64,000 nucleotides of DNA, from contig NC_052507.1 of assembly GCF_014356525.2 (NCBI RefSeq), forward strand, positions 58,130,053 through 58,194,052, given 5' to 3'. The translations under genes were made by a program, and so were the position numbers. The notes under the pieces are model-generated. The model worked only from the letters and a program-made list of their open reading frames with translations, had not been told where the DNA came from and did no database searches. Positions 26,135 through 51,595 of the stretch are shown here, in pieces. Position 1 is the stretch's first letter. The number at the start of each line of letters is the position of its first letter. Origin of the DNA: Nilaparvata lugens. Taxonomy: Eukaryota; Arthropoda; Insecta; Hemiptera; Delphacidae.

Positions 26135-27114
26135 ATGATTTGCAGTGAATGTAAATGTGAAGTGCCTGATCGCGATGTGTTATTGTGCTCTCGTTGTAGG
26201 ATTGAGCATCATTTCGTGTGTCAAAATATAAAAGATTCAAATTTTCGAAAAATGTCGGCCGAAACAAAATCGAAATGGTGTTGTTCAAAGTGTAAATTAG
26301 TCAACACCGGTACATGCTCGTCAACGGTGGCTGGCTTATCAACCACTGATAAGCAATCTCAGTTGGATTCAGACGGTAAGAGTAGCAGTGCTTCACTTTC
26401 GCTATCACTGACTAAAGCTGACCTTGAAGCTATTGGTCGAATTGTCAGAGAAATGATTCAAGCGGAGCTATTGCCAATCAAGCAAGAGTTCAGTGCAATA
26501 AAAGAATCAATTGAATTCATTTCTAACGAGTTTGATAATTTTAAGAGTGAACTTTCTACTTTTAAAAATAAGGTTGAGGAACTCAAAAAGGAAAATACTA
26601 CATTGAAATGTGACAATAATAAATTAAAATCACAATTGGACTCAATTCATGAATATACACGTAGGGACAATTTGATTATTACTGGAATTCCAGAAACAGC
26701 TAATGAGTCGGTTTACGAAATTTTCAACAGTGTATCAACTGCAATTAGTAGCCCACTAACATCAAAAGACTTAAGTACGGCACACAGACTTCCTACTAGA
26801 ATTAAAGGCAAGAATAGCATCGAACCGATAGTTGTGAAATTTGTACGAAGGCAGGACGAAGAGACTTGGTTAGCTGATTTCAGAAAAATGTCATCCATGG
26901 ACGAAACTAGTTACCGTATAGCGACAAAATCTATAAAAAAAATAAGTCCCTCCCTGATGGCAATGTATTGGCTCACCAAGACTTGCCTCCTCAAATCCTT
27001 GAACAACTCAAACAGGTACGAGAGGTCGCCTCTGAAAAGGGGTACAAGTTCCTGTGGTCGAGAGAGGGGAAGATATTTGTTCGCAAAGATACTATAACCA
27101 GGCGGCAATTGTGA
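26135..27114 (+). pseudogene. LINE ORF1: PHD-like finger, coiled coil, FP-like domain
   Basis: Nucleic-acid-binding ORF1 protein. Residues 1-55 carry the cysteine/histidine finger (CSECKCEVPDRDVLLCSRCR, HHFVC, WCCSKC). Residues 90-180 are helical with Leu/Lys/Glu heptads. EYTRRDNLIITGIPE starts the Baculo_FP-like fold and VVKFVRRQDEETWL follows. Near 26930 a run of A residues carries a one-base shift. The track then runs to a false end at 27097, while the other frame gives a family-like GYKFLWSREGKIFVRKD ending with TGA at 27112-27114. Otherwise it is well preserved. Confidence 0.82.
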
Positions 27115-27303
27115 TACATCGCAAGGAGGACTTAAACTCTCTGTAGACTCAGGATCAGGACCCAATTAATTTCTTTTGTATATTTTTATGCCGTTTGAGA
27201 ACTTTGAAAATCAAATTGTTTATGATAGGTAATTATGAAACATTAGTTGTAGAAGATATTAAATTATAAAATTGCTAACTTTTATGATGTAAATGTCATT
27301 CAC

Positions 27304-30142
27304 ATGAATATTAGGTCCATCAAGAAAAATTTCGATGAATTCATTTATTACATAAGCCATTGTAAAACTAAATTTGAAATTATAATATTATCTGAAACAT
27401 GGATTAGTAATGACTCAGAATTTGTTTTCAATATAGAGGGGTACTCTGTTGTAAATAGAAATAATAGGTTCACGAGGAGTGATGGATTATGTATATTTGT
27501 AAGCAAGGATATTGATTTTCAAGAAGTTAATATAAAAAAAGATAACGTAAATTCAATTATAATTAAATTTAAATTAAAAAATTCATCATATGAGATGATC
27601 GCACTTTACAGGTCTCCTTCTTTAGAAGTAAATGCCTTCTTGCTAAGTTTGGATTCCTATTTGCAAAGTATTGGAAATGAGGTATCTGTCATTGTAACGG
27701 GTGATATAAATATAAATATAATGGACGAAAATAATCTAAATTACTTAACAAATGAGTACCTTAGTATTTTACAATTAAATGGCTTTAAATCTTACATCAA
27801 TAAATATACTAGATCTTTCAATAATGCCAATGGGCAAGTTAACAGTTGTATTGACCACATGTTTTTTAAGGGTGAATCAAATAAGGAGTTGGACGTGCTA
27901 GGTGCAATCTTGCAATCAAGTATTACTGATCATTACAGTATTGTTTTCCATATCAGAGAGACATATCATGATGTTAAATCTAAGATAAATTTAAGTGATG
28001 CTGTAACTAAAATAAATTTTTGTAAGCTAAAATTATGCCTTGAAACTCAAAGTTGGGACGATGTTTGTGACAATGTGACAGAAGATATTGACACCTTGGT
28101 TGATAGGTTTACCAACAAAATTAATGAAAATATTAATAAATGCACTGAAGTTATTAAGTATTCTCATAAAAGAAAACCGTTGAAAAAATGGATTACTCCG
28201 GGTTTAATATCAGCCATTCGTAAAAGAGATAGGATGCATATCAAATTAGGCAAGCAGCCCTTCAATGCAAGCCTCAAACAAGATTACATAAATTATAGAA
28301 ATGTATTGAACTCTTTAATAAGAAAATCAAAGAATGATTACTACAACAATAAATTTATTGAATATAGAAATAATTCCAAGACAAAATGGGAGTGCATTTC
28401 TGAATTGTTGGGAAAGGAGAAAGAATATCACGAACCTAAAATTGATCCTGGAATTTTGAATAAATATTTTGTAAATGTGGGAATTGAGCATGCTAAGAAA
28501 TTGCTGGATTCTGTAAAGCATATTGAAATACCTCAATCATTAAATGCACCCCCAACAGATAGCATGTTCCTAAACCCAACTAGTATTAATGAAATTTTAG
28601 AAGTAATTGGTCAATTGAAGAATAACGCTTCTCCAGGTGTAGATAATATCAGTACACGTTGACGTTGTGTTAAATTAATGAGTAAATATATTGTTTGTCC
28701 ACTGGAACATATAATTAATAGATGTTTTTCAGAGGGTTATTTTCCAAGGGCGTTCAAGTCTGCAAAAATAATTGCATTACACAAGTCAGGGAATAAATCG
28801 CAACCAGAAAATTATCGTCCCATTAGTATTTTAAATAGCTTCTCTGAAATTATCGAGAAGATTATTAAAAAAAGAGTTTTAAACTTCCTAAATAGTAATA
28901 ATTTTTTTGAAAAAAATCAATTTGGTTTTCAACATGGGAAGTCTACAACTGATGCGATCATCCTCCTAACTAAATTGATAGATGAAAATTTCAATTCTAA
29001 ACAAAAAACATTGGCTGTCTTTTTAGATTTGGCAAAGGCATTCCATACAATCCCTCACAGCATTTTATTGGAAAAATTAGAGAAATGTGGGATTAGGGGT
29101 ATATGTAATGATCTTCTAGCTAGCTATCTTCAAGATAGAAGACAAACATCAAATTTGTGTGGAATATCAGTAACAGATCATTTATCTAGTTTTGGTTTAC
29201 CACAGGATACAGTACTGTCCCCAGTATTATTTTTGATCTATTTGAACGATGCTCTAAAATTGCCTATACCAAATTGTACCCAGATTTCTTTTGCTGATGA
29301 TGCAGCATTAGTATTTTCGAGTGAATCATGGCCACAGTGCTAATGATGGCCTAAAAATTATGAAAAATTGGATGGATGACCATATTTTAACAGTCAACTT
29401 AAAAAAGACAAAATATATTACTTTTTCTCCAACATTAGCGGGTCAACCTGATGATTCATTAAAATTAAAAATGCATACTGATTCACTCTGTTCAAATATC
29501 AGGATAAATTGTTTATGCCAACAAGTTGAGAAAGTCATGTCTATAAAATACTTGGGAATAATGGTGGATAGACATTTGAAATGGGATTCTCATATTAATT
29601 ATTTGTGTTCTAAACTTAAATTTCTTATATACAACTTTTACAAAATTAATCAATTAAAAGACCTTGACATAAAGAGATCAATTTATTTCGCTTATGCCCA
29701 CTCATTGTTTCAATATGCAATTGAGGCATGGGGTGGTGCATTTGATACTCATTTTAATAAAGTCTTCACATTGCAAAAGCATCTTATAAGGGCAGCACTG
29801 GGTAAAGCAAGGCGATACCCGAGTAGGAAAATTTTTGAAGAACTAAGGGTACCCACACTTAGGCAGTTATATGTGATAAAGATTGTTTCGCATTTAAATA
29901 AAAATATAAGTAATTTAGATATAAGGCATACACCATACAAAATACGACCAGCAGTATCAAACATTTTCAATATAAATTTTATTAAGTTAGTGGTGAGTAG
30001 ACACCAATTCTCTTATTTTTGTAATATATTTTCGAAAAAAGCTCCAATTATTTCCATAAATACAAAAATTACTAAAAAACTTCTTAAAGAAATAAATATA
30101 TGGGTTGAACAGAATATTTATTATAGACTACCTAAATTCTAA
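27304..30142 (+). pseudogene. LINE ORF2 (endonuclease + reverse transcriptase), three frame pieces
   Basis: Piece 27304-28662 holds the AP endonuclease (MNIRSIKKNFDEF, SETWISND, GDININI, SSITDHYSIVF) and the start of RT (LKNNASPGVDNI), with a stop at 28660. Piece 28678-29343 has NYRPISILNSFSEIIEKIIK, motif A FLDLAKAFHTIPH (the second Asp of the usual DxxKAFD is His), GLPQDTVLSPVLFLIYLND (Gly to Asp) and the active site SFADDAALVF. Piece 29321-30142 carries KYLGIMVDRHLKWDSHI to the C-terminus. One stop, one frameshift and two motif substitutions make it dead despite its length. Confidence 0.85.
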
Positions 30143-34100: not shown

Positions 34101-37100
34101 AAATCCTATTATATTAAGCGAGCAATTTCTGTATATATTTATATATTTGGTTATGAAACATCTATTCTTACAGTAAGACAAATTTTTATAAAAGTTCTTC
34201 TCATTCACATGTACAAACATCAAAACTCAATCTTTTCAGTAGTCTCACACTCTTATAACACCCGTTACAATGAAATAGACTAAATAATAATATGTGTGAT
34301 TGACAAGGCACTGGTGACTCAGCTGCACGCCAAAACGACTCTGTACTGAACTCTGTCTCTGTGAAGTGTGCGTAACATGCCTTAAGTAAAACGTTTGAGT
34401 TCAATGTATTGGTTTGACTTTAAAGTAAAAAATAAAATCAGTAATAATGTTCAAATAATCGTAATACTTTATTTCTTCACCGATATAACCTTCAACAGGT
34501 TATGGGCCCAGGATGGATCTTTCGTGTGCAAGTAAAAAAATTTTTTTAACCTAAATACTCTCGTGCAAGACAACAATGGAAGTTCGGAGATTCAACTCTA
34601 AAATAGTAATACCGGTGAAGTGATTGAACTCTAGTAAAAACATTAAAAGTAAAAGTAAAATACCCAAAAGTAAAATCAGGTAAGGCAATCGAGTTCAAAG
34701 TAAAAATGGCTGGTTCCAGTGATTCGGACTTGGGTATGGTTGGAAAGCTATCCAACGATGAAGACTTTCAAATGTGGAAATTTAAAATAAAAATTTTGTT
34801 CGACTCTCAAGGACTTAGTGATATTGTTAATGGAAAAGAATTAAAACCAAACGACCCTAGTAAAGAAAAAGAACTTTCTATTTTCAATTTGAAGAACGCT
34901 AAAGCCAAGAAAATAATAATAACTACAATTGACTCAAAACCTTTGAATCACATTTTGAACTGTGAAACTTCATGTGAAATGTTTAAAAAACTGTGTCAAA
35001 TCTACGAACGTGATGAAAAACAACAGAAATTTTCTCTAATGCAGGACTTTTTCAATTTTACACTAGAGGCTAATGAAGACATTGCTAGTTTCATCAGCCG
35101 TCTGGAAAATTTGACCCATAAATTGAAATCTGTTGGACACGAAATCGATGACGAGATGGTTATTGGCAAAATATTCAGCTCCCTGCCCAGGAAATACACC
35201 CACTTTCAAACTTCGTGGGAAGCAACCGCAATTTGTGACAGAAATCTCACAAACCTAACCTCCCGGTTGGTGAATGAAGAACGCAGACTATCTACTGATA
35301 AAGGTGATTCTGTGCAACCAGTGGTATTCAAAACATCGGAAATCCAGTGCTACAGATGCAAAAATTATGGACATATTTCCCGTGAATGCAGAAATAAAAT
35401 GAAACAGAAAAGTGGTCTATTCTGTAGTATTTGCAAGAAGAATAATCATGAAGACAAAGACTGTTACTTTCGTAAAAAACAGAATGATAAGAAGAAGAAC
35501 CAAGTATCCTTTTTAACTACTAATTCTAATGTAAAATACTATGACACTTTCGTAATTGACTCAGGGTCTACTTCACATATGGTAAAATCTAAATCACTAT
35601 TTGATAGTTCCATTCCAATTAGTTGTAAAGTAGGAGTAGCCAAGGAAAATGAATCAATGTTTGCTCTTGAGGTAGGAAACATCAAATCAGACAAATGCAA
35701 CTTAAATAATGTTTTATATGTTCCAGAACTTTCTAAAAATTTGTTATCTGTAAGTGCTATCACTGAGAACGATGGTAAGGTCTTATTTAGTGGAAATAGG
35801 GTTGAGGTGTTGAAAGACAATGAAGTCATTATGGAAGGCATAAAAAATTCGAATGGTTTGTTTGAAGTTGACTTGAAAATGCATAATTCAAATTCAGTCC
35901 ATCATGTAATGACTAGCACTATTTCACCCAAGTCTAATGAGTCTAATGAAGTAGAATTATGGCATAGGAAGCTAGGCCACCTTGGTGTAGATAACATGAA
36001 AAAGCTCATAAATCTTAGTGAGGGAATGAATATTAAAACTAAAATTGATGACTTTTCAAAAAACCCATGTGAAATATGCTTGTCTGCTCGCCAAACAAGG
36101 CAACCTTTTAAAACAGTCAGGGAAAGGGCAACAAGACCCCTTGAAATAGTACATACTGATGTTTGTGGGCCTATTACCCCGGTAAGTTGGGACAATAAAA
36201 GATACATGGTTACTTTTCTAGATGATTTCACACATTTTGTCATGGTATTTCTTATTCAAAATAAAAGTGAGGTATTTGATATAATGAAACAATTTGTAGC
36301 TGAAGTAGAGGCAAAATGGCATTCTAAAATTTCAAAATTTCGGTGTGATAATGGTGGGGAATATTCTAGTAATAAAATCAAGGATTGGTGTCAAAATAGA
36401 GGGATTTTCATGGATTTCACCATTCCATACACTCCAGAATTAAATGGAAAGGCAGAAAGAATCAATAGGACATTGCTAGAAAAGGTTAGGGCACTTTTGT
36501 TTGATTCAGGATTGAAAAAGGAAATGTGGGGTGAGGCTGTAAGGACAGCAGCTTATATTGTTAATAGAAGCCCAACATGTACTCTTGATTGTACTCCAGC
36601 TGAAAAGTGGTACGGTAAAAAACCAGATCTATCAAGACTACAGATTTTTGGAAGTATAGCATACAGTCATGTTGCAGGTAATCTTAAGAAACTTGACAGT
36701 AGAACCAAGAAGCTAACGTTTGTAGGATATTTGCAAAATGGTTATCGGTTGTGGGATGCTGATAAGAGGAAAATAATTGTTTCTAGGGATGTAATTTTTT
36801 CAAATGTTGAGCAATCTAACCAAGGTGAAAAGTATTCTGACCCCAAAGTATTCAAGATAAATCAAGGCTTTGACATTGAGGGAATCGCAAAAGGTAATGA
36901 TCCAAACAATGTATTTGAAGAAATTGAAAATGATGGAGTACAAGAAACTGAAATAAATGAAGTTGAAGAAATTGAAAATAATGAAGTAGAAGAAACTGAT
37001 ACAAGTGAAGCTGAGGGTATTGAGATTGAAACAAATGATATTGAAGATGGAATCAATGAAGTAGAAGTAAATGAAGAAAGTGGAGAAGAAATGATGGATG

Positions 37101-40100
37101 AAAGTAATGAAATAAGAGGGAGAGAGAAAAGAGTGATTAAAAAACCAGTGTGGTTGAAAGACTATGAAACCAGTTATCTTAGTCTACAAGTAGATGAGCC
37201 TCTTACATTTTCTGAAGCTATGAAATCAAACAATTCTGTAAAGTGGTTGGAGGCAGTAAAAACTGAACTAAATGCTTTGAAAGAGAATAATACTTGGACA
37301 GAGGTAGATACTGTACCAGAAAACAAAGAAATTATTGATAGCAAATGGGTATTTAAAATTAAAAATGATGAGAAGGGTAACATTCAGTACAAGGCTAGAT
37401 TAGTTGCTAGGGGGTTTCAACAAAAGGATAGCATAGATTTAAATGACATTTATGCCCCTGTGGCCAAATTGCCAACTTTTCGGATTTTCATGAGTGTTGC
37501 AAATAAATTAGGGTTTCCTGTATATCAGATGGATGTAAAAAATGCTTTCCTTAATGGTGATATCAAAGAAGACGTTTATATGTCATTACCAGAGGGAGTA
37601 GAAGGATTTAGGAATAAGGTTTGTAAACTTAAGAAGTCAATTTATGGTCTGAAGAAATCTCCAAAAGATTGGAATTCTAAATTTGATTCTGTAATGAAAA
37701 TGAACAATTTTACTAGGTCTAAAAATGATTATTGCTTGTATTCTAAAATTGTGGAGGGTAAAAAGGTATTTCTATTATTGTATGTAGATGACATACTTAT
37801 TTTTGGTTCAGATGAGAATGATGTTTCAAGATTGAAATCAGTCTTACAAGAAAATTTCAAGATGAAAGACTTGGGCTTAGTTTCTAATTTCTTGGGAATT
37901 AATGTCAAACAATATATTGAGAAGGGGGTAACTGTTATTAGTCAGAAGGAGTATCTCAAACATGTATTGGAAAAGTTCAACATGCAGGATTGTAAGCCAA
38001 TGGACACTCCCATGGATAAAAATTTCAACTTTGAATTATTGACTAGAGATAAGTCAGAGTCTGTAGAAATAGAAAAGAAATGTCGTAGACTAATTGGTTG
38101 TCTTATGTATGTTGTTGTAGGATCTAGACCTGATTTGTGTTGTACTGTATCTTTCTTGAGTCGATTCCAAAGTTGTGCCAGTGAAATGTTGTATAAAAAT
38201 TTAAAACGTGTATTGAGATATGTAAAATGTACTTTAGATTTAGAGCTATTATATAAGAGAGAATTGAATGATGATATGATTGTAGGCTATGTAGATGCAA
38301 ACTGGGGTGGTGATTTAGAGAGAAGATCAACCTCAGGTTATTGCTTCAAGGTTTTTCATAATATTTTTCTGAGTTTAGTGTCTTGCATCAGACTTAAGGT
38401 AAATTTTGCTCCTCATTCAATTCATAATTATTTATTAGAATTTCAATTAAGGTATCATTCCTATAATAGCTCTACAGTTTTTTTTTCTAATTGAAATCCA
38501 ACATCGTCGGGGTTTGTGCTTTGTTTCTCATTTCGAGTTTTCCCTGTCCTCCTCTCAATATCTTAGGATACGTCAACATCCTTTTCCAATATAAATTATT
38601 AATGAATTTATATGTAATTTAATAATAAAATTTTATTCTCGTCAGGCTGACTGATGGGGGCTCATCCTTGCTCACAGACCTTAGGTCCATGCAGGGATTA
38701 ATTCCTTTAAGTACGGCCTGTCAGCTTGCACTATTAGAGGAATAATAAACATTAATGGTAGAATAGAAAGTTTTTATGTTATTATGCTTTATTATTATTA
38801 TGCTTTGTAAGTAACATTATTGTATTGTAAACATTTTTCTGATAGTGTGGGTGACAGAATTTATTTATATTTGTTGTATTGTTTTTTGGATGAAGAATAA
38901 AAGAATTTGATTTGATTTGATTTGATTTATTTATTGGTTATCTATATGGTTATTTTCTATGTCCGGCTCTAACGATTTTCACGAAATTTGTAACATAGTA
39001 GGTTGATAAAAAAATCGATTGCACTAGGTCTCATCCCTGGGAAAACTCGATGAAGGACATTAAAAAGATAATTATTCATCCTTGAAAAAACAGCTGAGAC
39101 TTTCGTCGTCTGTGGATAATAAAAGTGATTGAGCAAGTGCGTCTGTGGAAAATCAAAATATCTCATCCCCGAAAATTCATAAACTGACATACAGCCAGCT
39201 GTAAAATAAAAACACGATTAAAAAGATAAAGAAACCTTAAGAGTTTGATAGGTGAAATTATTCATAATTGATCAAAAATAATAATCATATTTTAAATTAA
39301 AAGCATATTTTCGCGATGTTTCCTAATTCATCAACAAAGTTATTTTTTCTTTTAATACTTGAAACTTGAATAAACCTTTTTTTAGTAAATGCACTCAGCT
39401 GCTGGGTGGCTCTTAATCAATTAGAAATTTCAATCAGCTTGATCAAATATCTGATTTGTTGACATGACATGGTATATCATTCAAAATTAAAGTATATATT
39501 AGAATTTTCAAAGTTGATCAATATTTTACAGTTTTAAGTGATTAGTGAGTGTTATTTTGCTATTGAATTTGTTTTTTAGACAATCTAAACTAAAACTTTT
39601 ATGTTCTCAAATGTTTGGACTGGGAATTGGACTTTAATTCAAGTGCATGAAACATAATCTACTTTTTGTACTATTTATAGTGTATAGATCAAAATTCGAA
39701 AAATAAACCGTTTTGCGCTTTTAGTCCTTCCCCAATCATTCTAAAGAATTTTTGTGTTCTGTTTATCAATAAATAAATAACGAGCGAAGCTCGGTGCCCC
39801 GATATTATATTTTTAAATGAACTGAAGAATGTAAAATTGTAAACTCACACATCTGATTAGGAAACTCCTTTCCATGAGTTTTCGTTCAATTTTCTGCAAA
39901 CTCTCCATAGTTGAAGCAGGAAAATCCTCAATTATTCCCTCTGGGGGGTAGTGCAGGCTTGGCATATTCACATCTGCACGGCTTTCCTGCGCAGTTCTTA
40001 GAACTTCAACAGATTTCACAAGCTCGTTTTGCGTTTCCCTCAAGTAGAACAAGTTGGTATTCATTTTTTTTATTTCTCCTGCAAAAAGTAACAGAAGTTA

Positions 40101-42198
40101 TTGAATCAATTCGTTCCCTACACAAACACAATATGAACTTTAAAAAAAGTTTGTAATGACATGCAATTTATTAAACAATAATTTTGTGACTTAATATGAA
40201 TACTTATCAATTGTTTCCTTGGAAATTGCAAAATATCTTGAAAATTTGCGATTCAAATTGAGTTTTACATGTGGAATTGCTGGTTATACAGAGCGAACAG
40301 CAGCATGAGCTGTTGAAGCTGTAAGAAGTTGCGCAACAGCGTGATCATATTTATGTAATCACACAAATCTTGTTCAGTATCATTTTTCTGATTAACAATT
40401 AATGTACCATTGAGAACATCATTTTGAATGTATAGCCTATACTTGACTTTAATTTGATATGTTTGCTCTGTAACTATAGACTATTATTTCTTTCATTGGC
40501 AACTGAACCAATACATTTTAATGTAGGTATGATACTAAAATTCAATCAATTGTTTTTTTAAATTCGTGAACATTTGACATTTTAATTTGAAAAATGCTTA
40601 GAAACATCGATACTTAATATAAATTATCAAGCAGTCTGTACGGAGAAAAGTTCATAAACTAATTAACATTGAGAGCTCAACTCAATTGACATAAGAAATT
40701 TTGTCAGCCATCTATTATCCAAGGTCCATGTTTTAATGGGAAGGTGGACATGTGGTATATGATTTATATCGAGAATTCAAAGACAATTTGATTGCTGAGA
40801 ATTGCACAATGCTATATCTCAAACCCCTACAAAGATAACATGATATAGACTATACATACATTTTTTTCAAGAGACACAGATAATTATGAATAGTTTTATT
40901 ACTCAAAAAGGGTTTGACTGATTGATTTGCAGTCGTCACCATTCATTCTGTCATGCAATTTTGTACTGGAATCATGTATTCCCTTCCCCACCTTTCCCCA
41001 TTAGAAAAATATATGTGAATTTTTGGATATTCAAGATGGGGGACTTATTATTTTTAAAATTTTTGTTGTAATAACCTTGGGTATGTGATACATGATAACA
41101 TAATTTCAATGTCATAATGAATATTCACTTCGAGGTATCAACTGATTGATAAGTTTTTTCCAAATCACCTTTGTACTGTATAAGAAATATTAAGTTCCGT
41201 TTCACACACCACAATTATTTGAGGTCTGGCTTTCGCTGTCTTTAAAAATTATATTAGATTGAACAGAACTTTTCAAACAACATCATATGTTTGCCAAACT
41301 TCATTCAATCAAGTAAAATTCATAGGACCGGTAGAAAACCGGACGTCCAAAACTCGTGGTGTGTGGAACGGGATTCAATTAAACATAATTAATTTGAAAT
41401 TAAAAAGTACATGTTGAATTATTAAAATTAAGTTGGCGTCTACTTACTTGATAAAGTGCACATTGTATGTGCCAGCTGTTCGAATCCCACCTCACTTCCA
41501 TCAAAGGGACAGGAATGTTTTTTGTTCTTGCCCACTCGGCAACACCCTTTAGATTCCTCAAACACCTTTTCGCACCGCTTCTTTTTGAGGAGTGGTTCCA
41601 GAACTGGTGGACTATGGGAACTGGAGGAACTTTTTTGAGAAATAGGAGAACTCGAACTTGGGGATGAGCGGACTCTTCGAAGTGGAGATTCTTGCATAAA
41701 TGAAACTGATACCTCCTCCTCCTCCTCCTCCTCCTCATCCTCATCCTCAGCTTCCTCGACATTATTCACCATATTTTCAAATCTACGATTCTTCACCGCC
41801 TTCCTCTTTCCTCGCCCTCTTTCCTCATTTTCTGAGGACGTTAGTGAGGATTTCCCTGATAAAAAACGTAAGACATCCGTCATACCCCGTTGATAGTATT
41901 CGCTGTTAGTATCATCAGAAACATAATCGGGCACTTCACTTTCACATGAACTAGAAGTGGGGGAAGAATGAGGTAGGAGAGGATGAACTTCACTCAAAAG
42001 GTTTGAATGAAGCTCTTCAGGGTCTATTTGTGGGATTACAATAGAGGAGGGAGATTTTACCAATCCCTGAGGAGATGAGTTATCATCAGAGCTGCTATCA
42101 GACAGCCAAGATGTTGGCTGTTTTTGAGAATTACATCTCCTCCATTTTGTTGTTCTGGACAACCTATGGTAGCCCAAACCAAATGACTCCTTCGACAT
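31052..42198 (-). CDS. DUF4806-like protein, four exons, 422 codons
   Basis: Exons are 42198-41448, 40078-39849, 32424-32238 and 31152-31052, joined with phases 1, 0, 1 and canonical GT/AG sites, for a total of 1269 nt. The N-terminal 250 residues are low-complexity Ser/Glu/Lys-rich with an acidic run (EDEDEEEEEEEEE) and basic patches, suggesting a nuclear protein. The C-terminal part follows the DUF4806 pattern as I know it: FPASTMESLQKIERKLMER, then VTYVASCADKTSEG, NFSWKGVQRKD, FKNLLIAKVMI and a final LKAATWLAQAQSKLDKM. The function of this family is unknown, and members are often seen near or inside transposon-rich loci in insects. The copia element lies wholly in intron 2. The assembly rests on phase agreement, not on transcript data. 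Confidence 0.68.
31160..32230. other. Intron 3 of the DUF4806-like gene
   Basis: AT-rich, no repeat ends recognised. Confidence 0.5.
32238..32424 (-). CDS. DUF4806-like gene, exon 3 (core)
   Basis: It follows TTTGTTCAAAG and starts VTYVASCADKTSEG. The Trp of NFSWKGVQ and the FKNLLIAKV helix are the family-like positions. It ends with one base before donor GTAAGA at 32237. Confidence 0.68.
32555..32756. mobile_element. 202 bp near-perfect hairpin (MITE-like)
   Basis: CATAATGAAATAAAAA at the left end returns inverted at the right end, and most of the length pairs, for example ACAGTTTTATTCTGTACAGG with CCTGTACAGAATAAAACTGT. About 80 bp per arm with a loop of about 40 bp. It sits in intron 2 of the DUF4806-like gene. 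Confidence 0.8.
33090..33558. mobile_element. MITE with TTTACTCACAA termini, about 450 bp
   Basis: The left arm (TTCTTTACTCACAAAATATTTC..CTATGATGCC.GCATTATCAAGTGATTG) is inverted at the right (CAATCACTTGATAATGGCAT..TTGTGAGTTAAC). Same family as 6339-6480; the interior is non-coding. Confidence 0.72.
34498..34511 (+). promoter_or_regulatory. Copia primer-binding site
   Basis: GGTTATGGGCCCAG directly follows ...TTCAACA, the form of an LTR end. This is the copia-type site complementary to an internal part of initiator tRNA-Met. The 5'LTR therefore ends at 34497. Its start, somewhere in about 34,050-34,300, cannot be fixed because no 3'LTR is present for comparison. Confidence 0.7.
34706..38494 (+). 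CDS. Ty1/copia polyprotein, 3'-truncated in RNase H
   Basis: A single open frame of 1262 codons. Gag (residues 1-210) is followed by two CCHC knuckles (CYRCKNYGHISREC near 214, CSICKKNNHEDKDC). Protease VIDSGSTSHM is near 283. Integrase has the zinc part LWHRKLGHLG, then HTDVCGPI, RCDNGGEY and NGKAERINRTL (484-590). A long acidic Glu/Asn linker lies near 735-810. RT has KARLVARGF, YQMDVKNAFLNG and the active site LLYVDDILIFG near 1025. RNase H begins GYVDANWGGDLERRSTSGYC near 1195 and is cut at about 38362; the last 45 codons are foreign. Internally open, so recent. It lies inside intron 2 of the DUF4806-like gene in opposite orientation. Confidence 0.92.
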   Translation: MAGSSDSDLGMVGKLSNDEDFQMWKFKIKILFDSQGLSDIVNGKELKPNDPSKEKELSIFNLKNAKAKKIIITTIDSKPLNHILNCETSCEMFKKLCQIYERDEKQQKFSLMQDFFNFTLEANEDIASFISRLENLTHKLKSVGHEIDDEMVIGKIFSSLPRKYTHFQTSWEATAICDRNLTNLTSRLVNEERRLSTDKGDSVQPVVFKTSEIQCYRCKNYGHISRECRNKMKQKSGLFCSICKKNNHEDKDCYFRKKQNDKKKNQVSFLTTNSNVKYYDTFVIDSGSTSHMVKSKSLFDSSIPISCKVGVAKENESMFALEVGNIKSDKCNLNNVLYVPELSKNLLSVSAITENDGKVLFSGNRVEVLKDNEVIMEGIKNSNGLFEVDLKMHNSNSVHHVMTSTISPKSNESNEVELWHRKLGHLGVDNMKKLINLSEGMNIKTKIDDFSKNPCEICLSARQTRQPFKTVRERATRPLEIVHTDVCGPITPVSWDNKRYMVTFLDDFTHFVMVFLIQNKSEVFDIMKQFVAEVEAKWHSKISKFRCDNGGEYSSNKIKDWCQNRGIFMDFTIPYTPELNGKAERINRTLLEKVRALLFDSGLKKEMWGEAVRTAAYIVNRSPTCTLDCTPAEKWYGKKPDLSRLQIFGSIAYSHVAGNLKKLDSRTKKLTFVGYLQNGYRLWDADKRKIIVSRDVIFSNVEQSNQGEKYSDPKVFKINQGFDIEGIAKGNDPNNVFEEIENDGVQETEINEVEEIENNEVEETDTSEAEGIEIETNDIEDGINEVEVNEESGEEMMDESNEIRGREKRVIKKPVWLKDYETSYLSLQVDEPLTFSEAMKSNNSVKWLEAVKTELNALKENNTWTEVDTVPENKEIIDSKWVFKIKNDEKGNIQYKARLVARGFQQKDSIDLNDIYAPVAKLPTFRIFMSVANKLGFPVYQMDVKNAFLNGDIKEDVYMSLPEGVEGFRNKVCKLKKSIYGLKKSPKDWNSKFDSVMKMNNFTRSKNDYCLYSKIVEGKKVFLLLYVDDILIFGSDENDVSRLKSVLQENFKMKDLGLVSNFLGINVKQYIEKGVTVISQKEYLKHVLEKFNMQDCKPMDTPMDKNFNFELLTRDKSESVEIEKKCRRLIGCLMYVVVGSRPDLCCTVSFLSRFQSCASEMLYKNLKRVLRYVKCTLDLELLYKRELNDDMIVGYVDANWGGDLERRSTSGYCFKVFHNIFLSLVSCIRLKVNFAPHSIHNYLLEFQLRYHSYNSSTVFFSN
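38363..38932 (+). mobile_element. LINE 3' end fused to the truncated copia element
   Basis: From the point where copia homology stops, the sequence is a non-coding 3'UTR with AATAAAAGAATTTGATTTGATTTGATT at the end, a (TTTGA)n LINE tail like that at 58975-58995. It replaces the remainder of RNase H and the 3'LTR. Confidence 0.6.
38936..39810 (+). repeat. Dispersed repeat, copy 2
   Basis: It shares GGCTCTAACGATTTTCACGA, CATAGTAGGTTGATA, GATTGCACTAGGTCTCATCC and the terminal CGAGCGAAGCTCGGTGCCCC hairpin with 5549-6217. The central part is longer here. Confidence 0.6.
39849..40078 (-). CDS. DUF4806-like gene, exon 2
   Basis: The acceptor TTTTTGCAG lies at 40079-40084. It encodes NTNLFYLRETQNELVKSVEV and the PASTMESLQKIERKL helix preceding the DUF4806 core. 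Donor GTGAGT at 39848, phase 0. Confidence 0.65.
40085..41440. other. Intron 1 of the DUF4806-like gene
   Basis: AT-rich sequence without recognised elements. Confidence 0.5.
41448..42198 (-). CDS. DUF4806-like gene, exon 1
   Basis: ATG at 42196-42198; an upstream in-frame TTG is not used. It encodes 250 residues, mostly disordered: SSSDDNSSP, an acidic E/D run, and a SSPSSSSPISQKSSSSSHSP stretch. It ends TMCTLS plus one base before donor GTAAGT at 41447. Confidence 0.65.
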
Positions 42199-42479
42199 TT
42201 TCAAGCTGACGTAACTGTAAATTAAGAATTGCTATCAAAAAATAAAATTACTTACAACACTACAGGACAATATTTATACACACAGTGTTAATTAGGCACA
42301 GGCGGCTATTTCGAAAAAGCTAAATGACAACAGGGGTCCAATTTCACAACGTAACAAGTCTTGTTACTAACTTTCCATGTGAGGAATCACGCCCTGACTT
42401 ATGGGCACCTTTTTTCTTCCCAAAAAATGAGTTAAAAATTAGTTTAAAAAGATGTTCTTAGCCAATAGCTCAATACTTG

Positions 42480-44030: not shown

Positions 44031-44362
44031 TGAATGCCTGAGGGTGGAAAATTTTGATATGTTCACCTCCTTACTACCCTCAACAAAACTGCGGGGTCAA
44101 AAGTTGTCTTCCAAACTTTTCCCTCTATAACCCTTCCTTGACTGGACTATATATTTTATATAGCCCTACCCAAAAAAAATATGTTCTAAAATTAGTTTTA
44201 AAAAAATGTTTTCAATCAATAAATCAATACTTGAAATAATAATTGAAATCCAATAAGAAAACACCATTTCAGCTGTGTTACATATAAAGCGTTAGTCACA
44301 TTATTGCAAAAGTGAGTTATAGCTGATAGACTAGTGAATCCATCCGTTACCGTACGTTACAT

Positions 44363-45789
44363 ATGAGATCACCGGTCAGGGCGCCATATGGATTAATTCC
44401 GGAATTTGAGGAAGTGGGAGAAGAGAAGGAGCAATCATCATCTTCAGGACAGGTCCAGGAGTCCCCTACAATGGAACAACCAGCAGAGCAATCTACATCA
44501 AAGGTAATCAGCAATGAATTTTCAAAGGATTATGAACTTTTAAAGCAGTTAAACTGTCGGTCCCGGCTGAAGTATGACAGTCGTAAGGCCCATTGACGGC
44601 TTAAATTATATATTCAGGCGGTGGAACATTCCCGAAAGGGAACTCCCCACCAACAAAAGCCATACGAATTTATTTTTATTTATTTTTAAAGCAGATAAAG
44701 CACAAACTTAATCTATGGGCGGAAGCGGAATATGAAAAAAGAAAAGTTCTGAGAGCTGATTTCGACAGATTTATTTCAATAACTAATAAATTGTCGGAAA
44801 CAATCGTCAAATTAGAAACAAGGTCAGTAACAATTTTACAGCTAGCGGCAGGGCTCGGAAACACCAATAAGGGTATTCAAGAGTCCCTTAAAAATATAAA
44901 TAAGGCGGTAGACAATATAAAACAAAGTGAAAGTAGTGAAAGTAGGCCTACATTAAGCTATGCTGATATAGTGCAGTTGCCAGGAAAATCGAAGGAAAAT
45001 AAAGTTGCAGGGAACAATGTTAGGAAACTACAACCACAGGAGCATATAGTTATGTTGCAGCCAGTCAAACCAGTCCTGAACGAAGTGGAAAACAGTAGAA
45101 TTATTAAAAATGTATTGCGGGAGAATATCAAAAACAAAGACGATATTAGAGTTAAAAAGACCGTGAATGTAAGAGGAGGTGGCCTCATGATTTTTCTGAA
45201 TTCGGAAGAGGACAAGAAGAAAATAAGGCGTTGAAGACTGGAAATATGAAAAATTTGAAAATAGTTGAACCACAGAATAGGAAGCCACGTTTAATAATTC
45301 ATGATGACCCTAGTGATTTAAGCAAAGAGGAACTAGCCGAGAGTATTTTCAACAAAAACTTTGCTAGCTCTGAACTAGGAAAAGACGCATTTTTAAACGG
45401 ATGTAAGCCTCTCTACAAGGTTGGACCAAAGAACAAGGAAGTAGTTCATTGGATCATTGAATGTGAGCCCGAGATAAGAAGAATTCTAATAAATAGGAAA
45501 CGAGTCTTTGTCGACATGACTTCTTGCAGGTTAAATGACTTTATTTCGGTTCAATGGTGCTTCAAGTGCCAGTGCTTTGGTCACGTTTCAAAGTATTGCA
45601 AAAAAGAAAGTGAAGTCTGCGGTCACTGTGCTGAAGATCATAGCACTAAAGATTGTCCAAATACCGCCAAGGAAGCAATATGTAGCAATTGTAAGAAGAA
45701 CAAAAAGCCATCAAATCATAAAGTTCACGATCCACAATGTCCTAGCCACCAGAAATCATTGCAGCAATTGAAAAGACTAATTATGGGAT
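44363..45789 (+). pseudogene. Gag-like LINE ORF1 with CCHC zinc knuckles
   Basis: ORF1-type RNA-binding protein of I/R1-like LINEs. The N-terminus is Glu/Ser-rich (44363). It is cut by a 135 bp insertion (44549-44683), then continues with a helical region (IKHKLNLWAEAEYEKRKVL, ISITNKLSETIVKLE). A one-base shift near 45230 moves to the next frame, where the basic domain leads to three knuckles: CFKCQCFGHVSKYC (45558 onward), CGHCAEDHSTKDC and CSNCKKNKKPSNHKVHDPQC, then CPSHQKSLQQLKR. The class differs from the PHD-type ORF1s elsewhere in this window. Confidence 0.78.
44549..44683 (+). mobile_element. 135 bp SINE-like insertion with 11 bp target duplication
   Basis: TTTTAAAGCAG occurs at 44538-44548 and 44684-44694. 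The inserted sequence has GTCGGTCCCGGCTGAAGTAT at the start, GGGAACTCCCCACCAACAAA near the end and an ATTTATTTTTATTTAT tail. This looks like a short LINE 3' end or SINE copied into the gag frame. The gag reading frame resumes after it. Confidence 0.75.
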
Positions 45790-46283
45790 TGTTTAAAAAT
45801 AGATATTGTTCTCAAAAAATAATGAATCAGGCTGGAAATATTGTGTTGGATATTAATGAAATTTTAGGTAATTTGAATGATACAAATAGAGTTCAACAAA
45901 GATCAAAAAGTAGGACATCACTCGTATTTAATTTTGGAGGTTACACTGACCTGAATATTTCCTTCGCCAGCGTAAAAAACGAAAAAGTAAATATTTCCAA
46001 GGGCATTATTGCTACCGTAGTAAATAGGAAATGTATGAGCATTGATTACTTCAATAGTTCAACTACTATATTTTCACAAACAAAGCAAATTGATGCGTCA
46101 GTCAAATTCGACGAGTCATTAAAAATACTCAATTTGTTTTCATTGACAGATGATAGTAACTTGCTTTCCAATCTAAACATATTACTATCTATGATCGATG
46201 AATGGGCTTCAGATAAACAAGCTCTGACAGTTGGAATTGATTTTTTGGAACCATTGCTGATGATGTACGGTATCTTGTATTGA
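45790..46283 (+). other. Open continuation of the gag frame, unidentified (about 165 codons)
   Basis: The frame that encodes the zinc knuckles stays open for about 165 further codons after CPSHQKSLQQLKR, to a stop at 46281-46283. It contains RTSLVFNFGGYTDLNISFAS and DESLKILNLFSLTDDSNLLS. I do not recognise it as LINE sequence. Next to the helicase it could be an upstream part of a viral replicase. Near 46250 a different frame (starting IADDVRYLVLISQVLSWQQN) continues open for about 30 codons, suggesting one more shift. Confidence 0.4.
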
Positions 46284-46556
46284 TCTCTCAAGTACTGTCT
46301 TGGCAACAAAACATATTAAATATGTGTTTTACTACAAGGGTATAAATAATCTTACACTTTAAAATATTCCAGAAGAGAAAAACAATGAGAAAGCATGTCC
46401 AACGGGATACTTACCTGAAAAACAACCCAAACATGAAATCTTCTGAGTCAACATGATCAGATAAATTCTATTATTTACTATTAAATTCTGACTAACATTA
46501 CAAGAAAACAATTATTGAGCTCTTATTCGTAACTAATAGATATAAAGTGTAAAGAT

Positions 46557-47590
46557 ATGAATATTTATGATAATAATCCAAGGTTTCTATGGCCAACTGG
46601 AAAAAGTTATAGAATGGGCTTCTGCTTGGATAATGAAGGAACCTACGTGGAATTCAACGAGAGTAATAAAAGATTCTTAACAAAAGAAAAATACATTCTT
46701 GTTAGTAGAGATACACAACTCATGTTAAACGGTGAGCTGTATCAGAAAATATCATCAGTTGACATTTCTGCTTCAAGTCTTCCCAATATTACGTGGATAG
46801 ATGGTGTGCCAGGGTGTGGAAAGACGTTTGAAATACTGAACCAGCATAAACCAGGAATAGATTTAGTTCTAAATCAAACAAGAGCAGGAATCAAAGACAT
46901 CAGAGAGGCTGTCATTCATAAGTACGGTAAGGATTACTGTAGAAAGATAATCAGATTAGATTACAGAACAGTTTCATCTTTCATTATAAATGGAGTGGGC
47001 AAGAAATATCATTGTGTCTTTATAGATGAGGCTGTACTGATGCATGCTGGCTACATTGGTTTCATTGCAAAATTATCAGGATGCTCCGGAGTTTTCCTAC
47101 TTGGTGATTCTAAACAGATTCCGTACATTGAAAGGAGGGACTGAAAGTTAGACGGTCTCATCCTTCAGTTTTTTGTGAGCCCACACGGAAAGTGACATTG
47201 ACTAGAATGTCACGATCGATGTATGCTGCGCACTATCCAAATTCTATGGTTAAATTGAAACAACTAGTGGAAATCTTCACTCAATTAGAAAGACTATCTT
47301 CAACGGCGGTCTTCCACAGCTTGATCCAGAAACACTCGTATTAACATACACGCAGAATGAGAAAAAATTATTCAAGAGTTACTAGGTGACAGGATTGATA
47401 AAACAATAAAAATTCACACGATACACGAAGCACAAGGTCTTACTTATAGAAATGTTATGCTGGTGAGGACAAATTCAAAGGATCTAGAGATCTATAACAG
47501 TGAGTCATGTGATTGTAGCACTCAGTAGGCACACTCATAGTTTCAACTAACAGCAGCAGAGAATGATCTCATCATTGCTTATAAATAACA
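46557..47590 (+). pseudogene. Endogenous viral element: SF1 helicase of a positive-strand RNA virus (virga/nege-like)
   Basis: The open piece 46557-47144 has Walker A GVPGCGKT (46803-46826), a YRTVSSF segment, Walker B CVFIDEA (47014-47034) and motif III LLGDSKQIPYI (about 47099). These are the motifs of alphavirus-superfamily replicase helicases. After the stop at 47142-47144 the region is shifted and stopped several times, but motif V TIHEAQGLTY (47418 onward), LVRTNSKDLEIYNSES and motif VI VALSRHT (47515-47535) remain readable in two other frames. No methyltransferase or RNA polymerase domain of a virus is visible. It is non-functional as it stands. The source was most likely an insect-infecting virga-like virus. 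Confidence 0.82.
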
Positions 47591-47675
47591 CATTAAGCTT
47601 TGATGATAAATATATAATGAGATGGCAGAGGAAAATAGAGGAGAACAAGCATGTAGGGGTGCGTCTGAATAAGCA

Positions 47676-50600
47676 TAATGATGAGTAATAATAACGTGCT
47701 GGATGTGGCAAACGAACTGGATTTCGTGGATGAGATAGAGGACAGTGTGATGGAGGATAAACAACAACTCCACGCTGCTCTTCAACACTCTAATATAACT
47801 GTATTTTCTCTCAATATCAGAAGTATTAGGAAGAACTTCAATGACCTGATGATTCAGCTACAGGATATGTCCTATGATTTCGATATAATAATACTAACAG
47901 AATGCTGGATCAAAAGAGATTATACACAGAAGCAACTGAAGGACTACAATATTTTCCACTCTTTGAATAATCGTACTCAAAATGATGGAGTAATTGTATA
48001 TGCAAAAGAAAATCTCAACGTACAATCGGTAGAACTAAATATTAGACAGGCCAACGTTCTTCATCTACAACTTCAAACATCAAAGGAGAGATATAATATA
48101 TTAGCAGTGTACAGATCACCTTCCTACGCCAGCATATCAGAGTTTTTAGAGGACTTTGAAACAGTGCTTGGTAGACTGAGAGGTCAACTTATTATTTGCG
48201 CAGGAGACTTCAACATTAATACGCTACAGCCGCATCACCATTATCAACTTGATGACTATTACGACTTATATTGAGTGAACACGGTTTGAAGAACTGCATT
48301 AAAAAGGCTACCAGGGTAACAGCGGGAATGTCTTCTTGTTTGGATCATATGTTGACCAACTGTAAAAGTAAAATCCATCCAATCGTATATCACTCGAGTA
48401 TCACAGACCACTTCATTACAATTCTTGTACAGGAAGAACATCAGTTAGACAGAACAAATGGGGATGAACAGAGCTCAACTAACTGTCAACTCTCAACTAA
48501 CTGTAAATCTGTCAACTTGAACGGCTTGAGGAAAGGACTGCAAGTGGAACAATGGACGGAGGTTTTTGAGTCAAATAACACAGACTCAGCTTACGAAAAG
48601 TTCCTAGAAATTCTACAAAAACATATTGAGAGCAATCAATACACATCATTACAGACAAAAGAAGAGGATCAAGAGCATAAAACCATGGATAACACGAGGA
48701 CTTATCTCAGCTATAAGAACAAGGGATTCTCTAAATAGAAGAAGAAAGCTGGACCCAGAGAACGGAGAACTCGCTAACTACTACCGAAGATAGAGAAATA
48801 CACTGACATCACTCATCCAAACTACAAAAGAAAATTATTTCAAGATGCAACTGAATGAAGCGAACAATGATGTAAGGAAGACATGGAAAATGATTCAAAT
48901 CAGAAAAAGGATATACAACTGAATGCTTTGAAAATTAATGGTGACATAGTCACACTGAAAGATAATCCTAGAGAACTATTGAGTCATGTAAATAATTTCT
49001 TTGTTAATATTGGAGAGAGTATGGCTAACAAAATATCTGAGAGTCTGAATAAAAATATTAACCAAATTATAGCAGATAATGTACCAGAATTGCATGTATC
49101 AAATAATATGTTTCTTTTCCCCATAGATGAATAGGAAATAATAATCACAATTGATTCTTTACACAGCAATAGTGCACCAGGTCTAGATGGATTAGATAAC
49201 AGGACCTTGAAAGGAATAAAAGATTTAATTTCTAAACCTTTAACTCATATTTTCAATCTGAGCTTGTTATATGGTACTTTTCCAAGAGCAATGAAGCAAA
49301 TCTGTGTCAGACCTACACATAAAGCAGGCGATAAACTAATTATTAGTAATTATAGACCTATTTCACTGATTAGCAATGTATCAAAAATTTTAGAAAAACT
49401 AGTTAAATCAAGATTAATAAGCTTTTTAGAAATTAATAATATTCTTTCTCCTAACCAATTTGGCTTCCGCAAAGGTATAAGTACAGGATTAGCTGTACTA
49501 GAATTATCAAAATTTGTAACTAGCAATTTAGAGGAAAAGAATAAATGTCTAGCAGTATTTTTAGATTTAGCAAAGGCCTTCGACTCTGTTTCCCATGACT
49601 TATTAATAAAAAAGCTTGAGGCAATAGGTATAAGAGGAGTGCCACTTGAATGGTTCAGATCCTACCTCAGCAATCAACAGCAAAAAACAAAGGTTGAAAA
49701 CCATATGAGTGCAGAGGGTTCCATGAAGTTTGGAATACCTCAAGGAACAGTTTTAGGACCAATTTTTTATTCGATCTTTGCAAATGAGTTGTGCTCCATT
49801 CAAATTCGAGGTAGAGTTATAGCCTTTGCTGACGATCCAACACTCCTTTTTCAAGGAAAAAACTGGAGAGAAGTGTTCCAAACAGCAGAGATAGAACTAA
49901 CAAAAATCACTAGTTGGTTAAGAAATAATTTATTGTCATTAAATTCAGAAAAAACAAATTTTTTAGCTTTTTCTTTAACAAATAGCACAAAACCACACAT
50001 GACAACAATGAAGCTTCATAATTGTGATAGAAATAGTAACAATAATTGTAATTGCCCACTAATAGAACACTCTGACAATATAAAGTATTTAGGAATAATA
50101 GTAGATGATTCATTGAAATGGAACAAGCACATAACATATACAACTGCCAAAATAAGGAAACTTATACAAATTCTATCAATTAAGGCGTATCATAGACAAA
50201 GAAATGTTAAAAACTGTATACTTTACATTAGTTGAATCTCTTTTAAGGTACGGTCTGTTAGTTTGGGTTGCAGCTAACTTCAGTTTTATAGATCCATTAT
50301 TTAAAACTCAAAAACGCATTTTGAAAATAATGGGAAACAGGAAAATCCGGTTTCCAACTGTAGAATTATTTATAGAAAATAGAGTACTCAGCGTTAGGCA
50401 ATTGTATATATTGTTGTTATTAGGGTACCTATATGAAAAAACATCAAAATAGGAACCATATCATAAATCATAGCCATAATACTAGAATAAGAGAACGTTA
50501 CAACCAAGAAGTACCAAGGATGAATACAGCATTTGGGCAAAGATCACTAGGATATTTAGGGCCTACAATATCTAATAGAATACCATTAGAAATCAAAGGA

Positions 50601-50960
50601 GAGGAAAATTTCAATAGCTTCAAAAGAAAAATTAGACATTGGTTATTCAGTATTGGGATACAAAGTAGTGAGGAACTAATAGTAAGTAGGATTTAGATTT
50701 GAGTAGTATTCTTTTTAAATAAGGTAATTTATAGGTAGAAAATAGTACCTCGGTTTAGTATCTTTTGTACTAGGTTAATAGATATAGTTTAAGATTTTTT
50801 TGGAATTTTTGTATTATCTGTTGTAGCATAAATTAGTATTAATTTGATGATAGCCTCGACACATATATTATATAGTGAGGTATCATTTTCTAAACCCTGA
50901 ATATTGTTATATTAAAAAATATGTAATATAATGTAATGTATGTATGAATTTATGAATAAA
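47676..50960 (+). mobile_element. LINE ORF2 region (EN-RT), decayed, plus strand
   Basis: Endonuclease 47676-48274 (FSLNIRSIRKNFNDL, LTECWIKRD, DGVIVYAKE, CAGDFNINTL), then 48271-48738 with SSCLDHMLTN and SSITDHFITI. The linker is broken around 48740-48880. 48883-49134 leads into RT. 49207-50235 has NYRPISLISNVSKILEKL, FLDLAKAFDSVSH, GIPQGTVLGPIF and AFADDPTLLF (the residue after the catalytic Asp pair is Pro). The tail is at 50204-50452 and 50433-50696. At least five breaks. Related to the LINE at 26045-30385 rather than to I-type elements. Confidence 0.85.
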
Positions 50961-50984
50961 CTCCTCTGGATGTGTCGTCCAGAG

Positions 50985-51410
50985 AAAAATTGAGAGAAAA
51001 ATTGTTGAGAGAAAAATTGTAAGGCGTATCATGGGACCAGTCAGGACAGAATATGGGTGGCGTATCAGAAATAATGAAGAGATTGCCAATTTCATGGGAC
51101 CAGAAGATATTGTACGAGTTATAAAGGCGCAACGGTTGAGATGGTTGGGGCATGTCCAGAGAATGGAGCACTGCAGACTACCGCATAAGTTGTTAAAAAG
51201 TAAAATGATTGGTACGCGTAGAAGAGGAAGACCCAGGAGGAGATGGCTGGAGGATGTGAGTGCCGATTTGCGTGTTTTGGGCATCAGAGGATGGGAGAAT
51301 GTGGCGGAGAGGAGAGACGATTGGAGGCGAATTGTGCAGGAGGCCAAGGTCCACATCGGACTGTAGCGCCAATGAAAGTAAAGTAAGTAAGGATGTGTCG
51401 TCCAACATCC
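50985..51410 (+). pseudogene. RTE-type C-terminal fragment flanked by direct repeats
   Basis: The 111-codon frame 51031-51366 includes VIKAQRLRWLGHVQRMEHCR, GTRRRGRPRRRWLEDV and WRRIVQEAK, the C-terminal region of RTE-like RTs. GGATGTGTCGTCCAGAGAAA lies before it (50964-50983) and GGATGTGTCGTCCAACATCC..AGAGAAA after it (51392-51416). AGAGAAAAATTG is repeated three times just upstream. Confidence 0.72.
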
Positions 51411-51416
51411 AGAGAA

Positions 51417-51485
51417 ATTATTATTATTATTATTATTATCATTATTATTATTATCATTATTATTATTATTATCATTATTATTATT
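51417..51485. repeat. (ATT)n microsatellite
   Basis: About 70 bp of ATT with occasional ATC units, directly after the RTE fragment. Confidence 0.9.
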
Positions 51486-51595
51486 GAAAATATTAATTTG
51501 CCCTCATGCAAAGCCTATGGTAATGATTGGAATAGTACAGTATTCTTTCCTGCTCAAATCAAACCTGTACTGTAGGCTACAGAAGAGCCACGACA

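What the first reader, a model, noticed from the sequence alone, without database searches (positions are those of the whole stretch)
44363..50960. Gag-like ORF1, RNA-virus-type helicase and LINE EN-RT in one collinear plus-strand locus
A zinc-knuckle ORF1 (I/R1-like), a superfamily-1 viral helicase and a LINE EN-RT are lined up in the order and orientation expected of a single element, with the helicase exactly where ORF1 would meet ORF2. Seen: the motifs and order. Known: helicases with GVPGCGKT, IDEA, GDSKQIP, HEAQG and ALSRHT belong to alphavirus-superfamily replicases, and I know of no LINE lineage that carries one. Inference: either a retrotransposon captured a viral helicase, or template switching during target-primed reverse transcription joined viral and LINE RNAs, or this is a stack of nested insertions. 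The ORF1 class differing from the ORF2 class favours a chimera over an intact lineage.
Basis: partly seen in the sequence, partly recalled or inferred. Interest (0 to 1): 0.85.

Follow-up and report, generated by a model that had tools for sequence, protein, structure and literature searches.

The report
Planthopper LINE carrying a viral-type helicase
This is a decayed copy of a jumping gene of the brown planthopper that carries an RNA-virus-type unwinding enzyme as a third gene; this kind of element was reported in 2017, but its three overlapping genes, several young families and apparent swapping of gene blocks go beyond the parts of that report that I could read.

Summary
Window 44300 to about 51487 is one old, broken copy of a non-LTR retrotransposon (family A) of the brown planthopper Nilaparvata lugens, with gene order ORF1 (zinc knuckles), ORFH (viral SF1 helicase), ORF2 (EN-RT). 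It is not a one-off chimera. Junction 1 is intact in 20 of 20 fetched copies, junction 2 in 17 of 20; 14 copies differ from a 15th by at most 0.53%. Beyond their text I find: the helicase is a separate middle gene; overlaps are conserved (14, 14, 14, 11 nt; 8 nt in all four) in four families of identical order; ORFH has a conserved N-terminal region of about 300 residues without a known relative; ORF1+ORFH appears to move as a block between ORF2 lineages. A helicase-less LINE at 26090-30142 groups by ORF2 with family D. Long-term constraint on ORFH is strong; on the most recent branch I detect none (7 synonymous, 17 nonsynonymous). What the helicase does is inferred, not shown.

The parts
44300..51487 (+). 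Whole element copy (family A), lacking about the first 70 bp of the 5' end seen in most other copies; includes two later nested insertions
   Evidence: Colinear blastn with 20 other genomic copies; 5' and 3' ends of other copies; tail
44363..45796 (+). ORF1 remnant with CCHC zinc knuckles; 430-444 codons open in other copies (annotated in N. lugens as uncharacterized LOC120356092)
44549..44683 (+). SINE-like insertion inside ORF1, absent from the 20 other copies compared, between repeats TTTTAAAGCAG
45783..45796 (+). Junction 1: ORFH start codon overlaps the ORF1 stop by 14 nt (ATGGGATTGTTTAA)
45783..47688 (+). ORFH: about 300-residue N-terminal region of unknown fold followed by SF1 viral-type helicase; 650-codon open frame in unbroken copies; broken here
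46533..47600 (+). SF1 helicase core (Viral_helicase1), in pieces in this copy
47678..47688 (+). Junction 2: ORF2 start codon overlaps the ORFH stop by 8 nt (ATGAGTAA); two tandem in-frame ATGs in this copy, three in copies L012 and L013
47678..50696 (+). ORF2 remnant: AP-type endonuclease and reverse transcriptase, 1011-codon open frame in unbroken copies
50697..50981 (+). 3' UTR up to the terminal hairpin
50982..51390 (+). Nested 3' fragment of another LINE, flanked by the 14-bp repeat GGATGTGTCGTCCA (50968-50981 and 51391-51404)
51391..51487 (+). Rest of the element's 3' end: hairpin GGATGT...ACATCC and (ATT)n tail

Best explanation
Shown: the locus is an old copy of a three-gene non-LTR retrotransposon family of Nilaparvata lugens (ORF1 - ORFH - ORF2), one of at least four such families in the genome. 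The copies read from each of the four families have overlapping genes in the same order; families A, B and C were each seen as several near-identical copies. Inferred: one RNA is made. ORF1 protein coats it. ORFH and then ORF2 are translated by stop-start coupling at the conserved 14- or 11-nt and 8-nt overlaps. ORF2 nicks the target and copies the RNA from its terminal hairpin and (ATT)n tail. Inferred, and least sure: the helicase works inside the element's own RNP, unwinding structured or double-stranded element RNA so that it is translated and reverse-transcribed rather than diced. I give RNP or reverse-transcription help about 0.45 and silencing suppression about 0.35.
For: Copies and junctions. 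Youth: 14 of the 19 other fetched copies differ by 0-0.53% (mismatches, gaps not counted) from copy L013 in ORFH and ORF2 where those parts are present. Of 34 ORF2 matches that begin at residue 1, 29 have an ORFH match directly upstream, and the other 5, fetched, keep the ORFH 3' end next to ORF2. Four families with the same order and overlaps. Long-term constraint: ORFH 50% identical between A and B with synonymous sites saturated and dN 0.44, against 0.41 for ORF1 and 0.34 for ORF2; differences at codon positions 1/2/3 are 0.38/0.27/0.63; helicase motifs kept in 19 aligned homologues. All 9 ORF1 homologues listed end in Y-G plus 1-3 residues, as expected if TATGG must also give the ORFH start. 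Species: ORF1 is 99.8-100% identical to N. lugens LOC120356092, whose contig length equals that of C2810.
Against: On the most recent branch ORFH shows no constraint: shared changes 7 synonymous to 17 nonsynonymous (plus one stop), private 45 to 91, Fisher p=0.82, while ORF2 does (24:17 against 42:135, p=4e-5); ORF1 is not significant either (8:10 against 31:72, p=0.28). Four fetched copies (L018-L021) have an 8-A instead of a 9-A run that breaks the ORFH frame, and 6 places show the resulting 401-codon frame, so broken-ORFH copies may have spread. No expression, translation or helicase assay was possible. Structure prediction was never accepted.
Confidence: 0.85

Rival explanations
1. The trio is a stack of nested insertions or a single template-switching accident at this locus.
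For: Two real nested insertions lie in this copy.
Against: Same junctions in 20 of 20 (J1) and 17 of 20 (J2) other fetched copies with different flanks; three more families with the same order.
Confidence: 0.01
2. ORFH is mainly a suppressor of host RNA silencing that protects the element's RNA, rather than a helper of reverse transcription.
For: The SF1H of a lepidopteran TRAS element had weak but detectable suppressor activity in a plant assay (PMC4686597, passages; PMC5563155). Being a separate ORF, ORFH need not be tied to the RT.
Against: No assay for this protein; the helicase motifs are kept, whereas mere small-RNA binding might not need ATPase motifs.
Confidence: 0.35
3. ORFH is now a passenger in family A, kept from earlier times but not needed for current spread.
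For: No constraint detected on the recent branch; copies sharing an ORFH-breaking A8 run.
Against: In the P0010 search 61 of 68 scored ORFH matches (all families, best candidates only, so biased to unbroken ones) have no stop in the matched stretch and all 68 rows show an open frame of at least 603 codons; strong long-term constraint; the A-run difference could be an assembly error.
Confidence: 0.12
4. The disagreement between ORF2 and ORF1/ORFH trees reflects uneven rates or sampling, not exchange of gene blocks.
For: Clades were named after seeing the trees; the link of P0024/P0025 to P0012/P0007 rests on equal contig lengths only; the PHD-ORF1 LINE was seen at one locus.
Against: AU tests reject the vertical alternatives (p=0.00012, 6.5e-63 and 1.0e-7; 0.0013). 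Family C keeps the same ORFH-ORF2 junction in 4 of 4 copies on four contigs. EN and RT trees agree on C.
Confidence: 0.35

Closest known systems
SF1H-encoding Jockey-like LINEs of Hemiptera and Orthoptera, incl. N. lugens (Morozov et al. 2017, PMC5563155)
   Same: Same species, dozens of copies, viral SF1 helicase ORF directly before and overlapping an EN-RT ORF2
   Different: They place the helicase in ORF1 and give a 2-nt overlap with ORF2 for one contig; here a separate zinc-knuckle ORF1 precedes it, so it is a third ORF, with an 8-nt overlap. I saw the legend of their Fig. 4 but not the figure, nor the supplements
TRAS (R1 clade) LINEs with C-terminal SF1H in Lepidoptera (Lazareva et al. 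2015, PMC4686597)
   Same: A LINE carrying a virus-derived SF1 helicase
   Different: There it is fused to the C terminus of ORF2; here it is an independent ORF upstream of ORF2
Tobamovirus-type replicase helicase (PDB 3vkw, 3wrx, 'Replicase large subunit'; that these are tomato mosaic virus is recalled)
   Same: Closest solved structures by sequence, E=8.6e-37 single sequence and 1.2e-57 profile for 3vkw
   Different: Match covers only the helicase core; no methyltransferase or RdRp, and the N-terminal region of ORFH is not matched

Membership tests
SF1H-bearing Jockey-like LINEs (Morozov 2017) | Viral SF1 helicase ORF next to or overlapping LINE ORF2 | tested here: met
SF1H-bearing Jockey-like LINEs (Morozov 2017) | Helicase encoded in ORF1 | tested here: not met
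   A separate CCHC ORF1 precedes and overlaps the helicase ORF in four of four families read; their text calls the helicase ORF itself ORF1, so this may be a difference of naming
SF1H-bearing Jockey-like LINEs (Morozov 2017) | EN and RT in ORF2 | tested here: met
   RVT_1 and Exo_endo_phos above cut-off in L013 ORF2, no RNase H family listed at E<=0.1
SF1H-bearing Jockey-like LINEs (Morozov 2017) | RT falls in the Jockey clade proper | not tested
   No clade reference set was at hand; the RT reads CR1/L2/Jockey-superfamily-like to me (recalled)
TRAS/R1 LINEs with SF1H | Helicase at the C terminus of ORF2 | tested here: not met
   Helicase ORF lies upstream of ORF2
Alphavirus-superfamily SF1 helicases | Pfam Viral_helicase1 with Walker A, DEAx and C-terminal motifs | tested here: met
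   21 of 21 members of A1 match PF01443 at E<=1, best 2.2e-40; motifs (the strict patterns missed motif III in D and RRCP in C, where the stretch reads GDANQI and NRCP)
Endogenous viral element (replicase insertion) | Adjacent methyltransferase or RdRp | tested here: not met
   No such Pfam family listed for ORF1, ORFH or ORF2

The most novel reading that the evidence does not exclude
The zinc-knuckle ORF1 and the viral-type helicase form one exchangeable 5' cassette that has been joined to several different EN-RT (ORF2) lineages. LINEs of this group would evolve by swapping 'gag+helicase' and 'PHD-ORF1' cassettes at stop-start junctions, and the helicase would be a portable accessory gene rather than a trait of one lineage.
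Probability: 0.5. Interest if true: 0.68.

Novelty: already known. Interest (0 to 1): 0.5.

Why it matters
Helicase-bearing LINEs have been on record since 2015-2017. If the three-gene plan, the conserved overlaps and the cassette exchange hold, N. lugens is a good system for asking what a viral helicase does for a retrotransposon: at least four families, many unbroken copies, and a helicase-less relative with related ORF2 in the same genome. It also documents the taking-over of an RNA-virus-type enzyme by a selfish DNA element, with long-term purifying selection.

Tried and rejected
Nested or one-off chimera: rejected by copies. Whole endogenous virus: rejected, only the helicase core is viral-like. 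Relatives of ORFH in IMG/VR and GTDB genomes: none found. Rfam on the window at gathering scores: none. NCBIfam: nothing useful. Target-site duplications: none convincing among 8 copies with both ends read (the longest shared string was 10 bp, TAATAATTTT in L010); the 5' end is preceded by ATT in 14 and TTT in 2 (L009, L016) of 16 copies with a full 5' end. Recent-branch selection on ORFH: no constraint seen. dN/dS between A and B: dS saturated, no ratio obtained. RNA folds around junction 1: no shared structure seen by eye. ORF2 clade name (Jockey, CR1 or L2): not tested. A tree with virus replicases: not made, since no virus set could be reached with the length-limited protein search. Fold of the ORFH N-terminal region: structure prediction was never accepted.
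Full report
What is there. The window lies in a 1.085-Gb genome. The ORF1 of family A (copy L013) is 99.8-100% identical to the Nilaparvata lugens protein LOC120356092, whose contig is 19,338 bp long, which is the length of contig C2810 here, so the host is the brown planthopper. Window 44300-51487 is one copy of a non-LTR retrotransposon, called family A here. In this copy all three genes are broken and it differs by 2.2-3.5% (mismatches) from copy L013 in the three ORFs. A 4-nt loss near the end of ORF1 puts ORF1 and ORFH in one frame at junction 1 in this copy. Two later insertions sit inside it: a SINE-like piece in ORF1, and a fragment of another LINE in the 3' hairpin with a 14-bp duplication.

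It is a family. 39 other places match window 45700-46700; 33 of them cover practically the whole stretch at 90-92% (40 scored of 156 candidates, the window included). I fetched 20 of the 39. Junction 1 is spanned in 20 of 20 and junction 2 in 17 of 20, the other three (L023, L027, L028) being interrupted before or at it. Flanks differ between copies; 16 of 20 begin at exactly the same base, after ATT in 14 and TTT in 2. The 3' end is a hairpin (-17.3 kcal/mol for 34 nt) followed by an (ATT)n tail. Fourteen of the 19 other copies differ from L013 by 0-0.53% in ORFH and ORF2 where those parts are present, gaps not counted. Of 47 ORF2 matches (first look 55,678 candidates, 45 scored), 34 begin at residue 1. 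29 of them have an ORFH match just upstream or 40 (one of these, on C5, only by the DNA match). I fetched the stretches upstream of the other five, and each keeps the 3' end of ORFH next to ORF2. So among these I saw no family A copy in which ORF2 follows ORF1 directly.

More families. The helicase protein search scored 103 of 1072 candidates: 51 at 74-100% identity (family A, the window included) and 52 at 56-58%. With a foreign ORFH homologue as query, 68 of 1259 candidates were scored; all 68 rows show an open frame of at least 603 codons and 61 have no stop in the matched stretch. Only the best candidates are scored, so unbroken copies are over-represented. I read copies of three further families: B (L029, and L030), C (L036) and D (L037). 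All have ORF1 - ORFH - ORF2, with overlaps in A, B, C and D of 14, 14, 14 and 11 nt at junction 1 and 8 nt at junction 2. Nine of nine ORF1 homologues from the protein search, three of which are families A, B and C themselves, end in Tyr-Gly plus 1-3 residues. This is what TATGG, shared by the ORF1 end and the ORFH start, would give. Of 19 full-length ORFH homologues 9 start with Met-Gly and P0001 has it after a 20-residue extension. Stop-start coupled reinitiation is the natural reading, but it is an inference.

The helicase ORF. Pfam finds Viral_helicase1 in 21 of 21 members of alignment A1. The closest solved structures are viral replicase helicases (3vkw/3wrx) and then a helicase/nsP2 group (6jim, 7y38), and these match only the core. 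Residues 60-345 (in P0001) are also conserved (mean pairwise identity 0.35, against 0.52 in the core), yet no Pfam family recurs there and no solved structure matches there except one chance-level hit at E=0.099. I could not get a structure prediction.

Selection. Between A and B amino-acid identity is 50.8% (ORF1), 50.1% (ORFH) and 56.3% (first 680 codons of ORF2); synonymous sites are saturated and dN is 0.41, 0.44 and 0.34. Codon-position differences in ORFH are 0.38/0.27/0.63. So ORFH has been held about as firmly as ORF1 over the long run. On the recent branch the picture is weaker. I took changes shared by at least two of six older copies (window, L009, L024, L025, L026, L028; grouped by divergence) and absent from the other 15. 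They are 24:17 synonymous:nonsynonymous in ORF2, 8:10 in ORF1 and 7:17 (plus one stop) in ORFH. Private changes are 42:135, 31:72 and 45:91 (stops left out). Fisher p = 4e-5, 0.28 and 0.82. Changes seen in any young copy are few and alike in the three ORFs (13:19, 11:16, 9:12). Four fetched copies (L018-L021) have an A8 run, against A9 in ten; this splits ORFH into 255 and 401 codons in three of them, the fourth having further breaks; three older copies have 7 or 8. One search shows six places with that 401-codon frame. Either broken-ORFH copies spread, or the run is misassembled.

Different histories of the gene blocks. In the ORFH tree C groups with A and B (96/99). In the ORF2 tree C groups with P0024 and P0025 (100/100), in both EN and RT parts. 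Holding C's ORF2 with A, B and P0022 is rejected (p-AU 0.00012), and so is holding C's ORFH with P0012 and P0007. P0012/P0024 and P0007/P0025 are paired only because their contig lengths agree (5415 and 5877). By my own rough estimate about one such coincidence could arise by chance among all pairs listed (P0106 also shows 5415), though not readily for two of the four top ORF2 hits, whose ORFH and ORF2 identities to each other are both 58.4%. Family C is a real family: the ORFH-ORF2 junction is the same in 4 of 4 copies (98.4-99.7%). In the same window, 26090-30142 holds a LINE with a quite different ORF1 (PHD-like Cys/His pattern read by eye; Pfam gave only weak coiled-coil-type hits) and no helicase between ORF1 and ORF2 (open frames 155 nt apart). 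Its EN groups with family D's ORF2 (100/98), and one clade of A, B, C, D, P0022, P0024 and P0025 without it is rejected (p-AU 0.0013). Against a wide scatter: in a 44-row ORF2 tree (midpoint-rooted for drawing) these ORF2s, the helicase-less LINE and four of unknown status form one cluster of 12, so the ORF2 lineages concerned are relatives, not strangers. The helicase status of P0022 is unknown. All these clades were named after seeing trees. The simplest reading is that ORF1+ORFH moves as a block between related ORF2 lineages.

What is known. Lazareva et al. 2015 (PMC4686597; abstract start in the search listing and passages) described R1/TRAS LINEs with a C-terminal helicase. Morozov et al. 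2017 (PMC5563155; parts 1-5 of 7 read, and passages) reported dozens of N. lugens sequences in which a helicase ORF lies next to or overlaps a Jockey-type ORF2, and placed the helicase in ORF1. Of Morozov et al. 2019 (PMC6338049) I read passages, and of PMC7658314 passages. So the core of this finding is already known. I found no account of the separate ORF1, the conserved overlaps, the N-terminal region or block exchange in seven searches of an open-access library. The figures and supplements of the 2017 paper were not available to me.

Mechanism. Shown: architecture, copy number, youth, long-term constraint. Inferred from established LINE biology: ORF1 RNP, coupled translation, target-primed reverse transcription. 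Least certain: the helicase's job. I favour unwinding of element RNA in the RNP (0.45), then silencing suppression (0.35), then a present-day passenger (0.12).

Noticed in passing
window 26090-30142 (+): Another, broken LINE with a PHD-like/coiled-coil ORF1 directly before ORF2 and no helicase; its ORF2 groups with helicase-bearing family D. Copy number could not be checked.
   Followed up: partly
window 34628-38494 (+): Copia-type LTR retrotransposon polyprotein with a 1288-codon open frame (gag, integrase, RT).
   Followed up: no
window 13633-15885 (-): 750-codon open frame of a further LINE reverse transcriptase, 33% identical to family A ORF2.
   Followed up: no
L018-L021, poly-A run in ORFH: Copies with 8 instead of 9 A share an ORFH-breaking frame change: either a spread broken lineage, a slippage site, or assembly error.
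   Followed up: partly
L018, just upstream of the element's 5' end: A second element 5' end lies head to head with this copy.
   Followed up: no
L029/L030 3' end: Family B copy L029 ends in a long hexanucleotide tail (reads as N-L repeats), unlike the (ATT)n tail of family A.
   Followed up: no
window 41440-42231 (-): 263-codon open frame with acidic and serine-rich stretches, no Pfam family above its cut-off.
   Followed up: no
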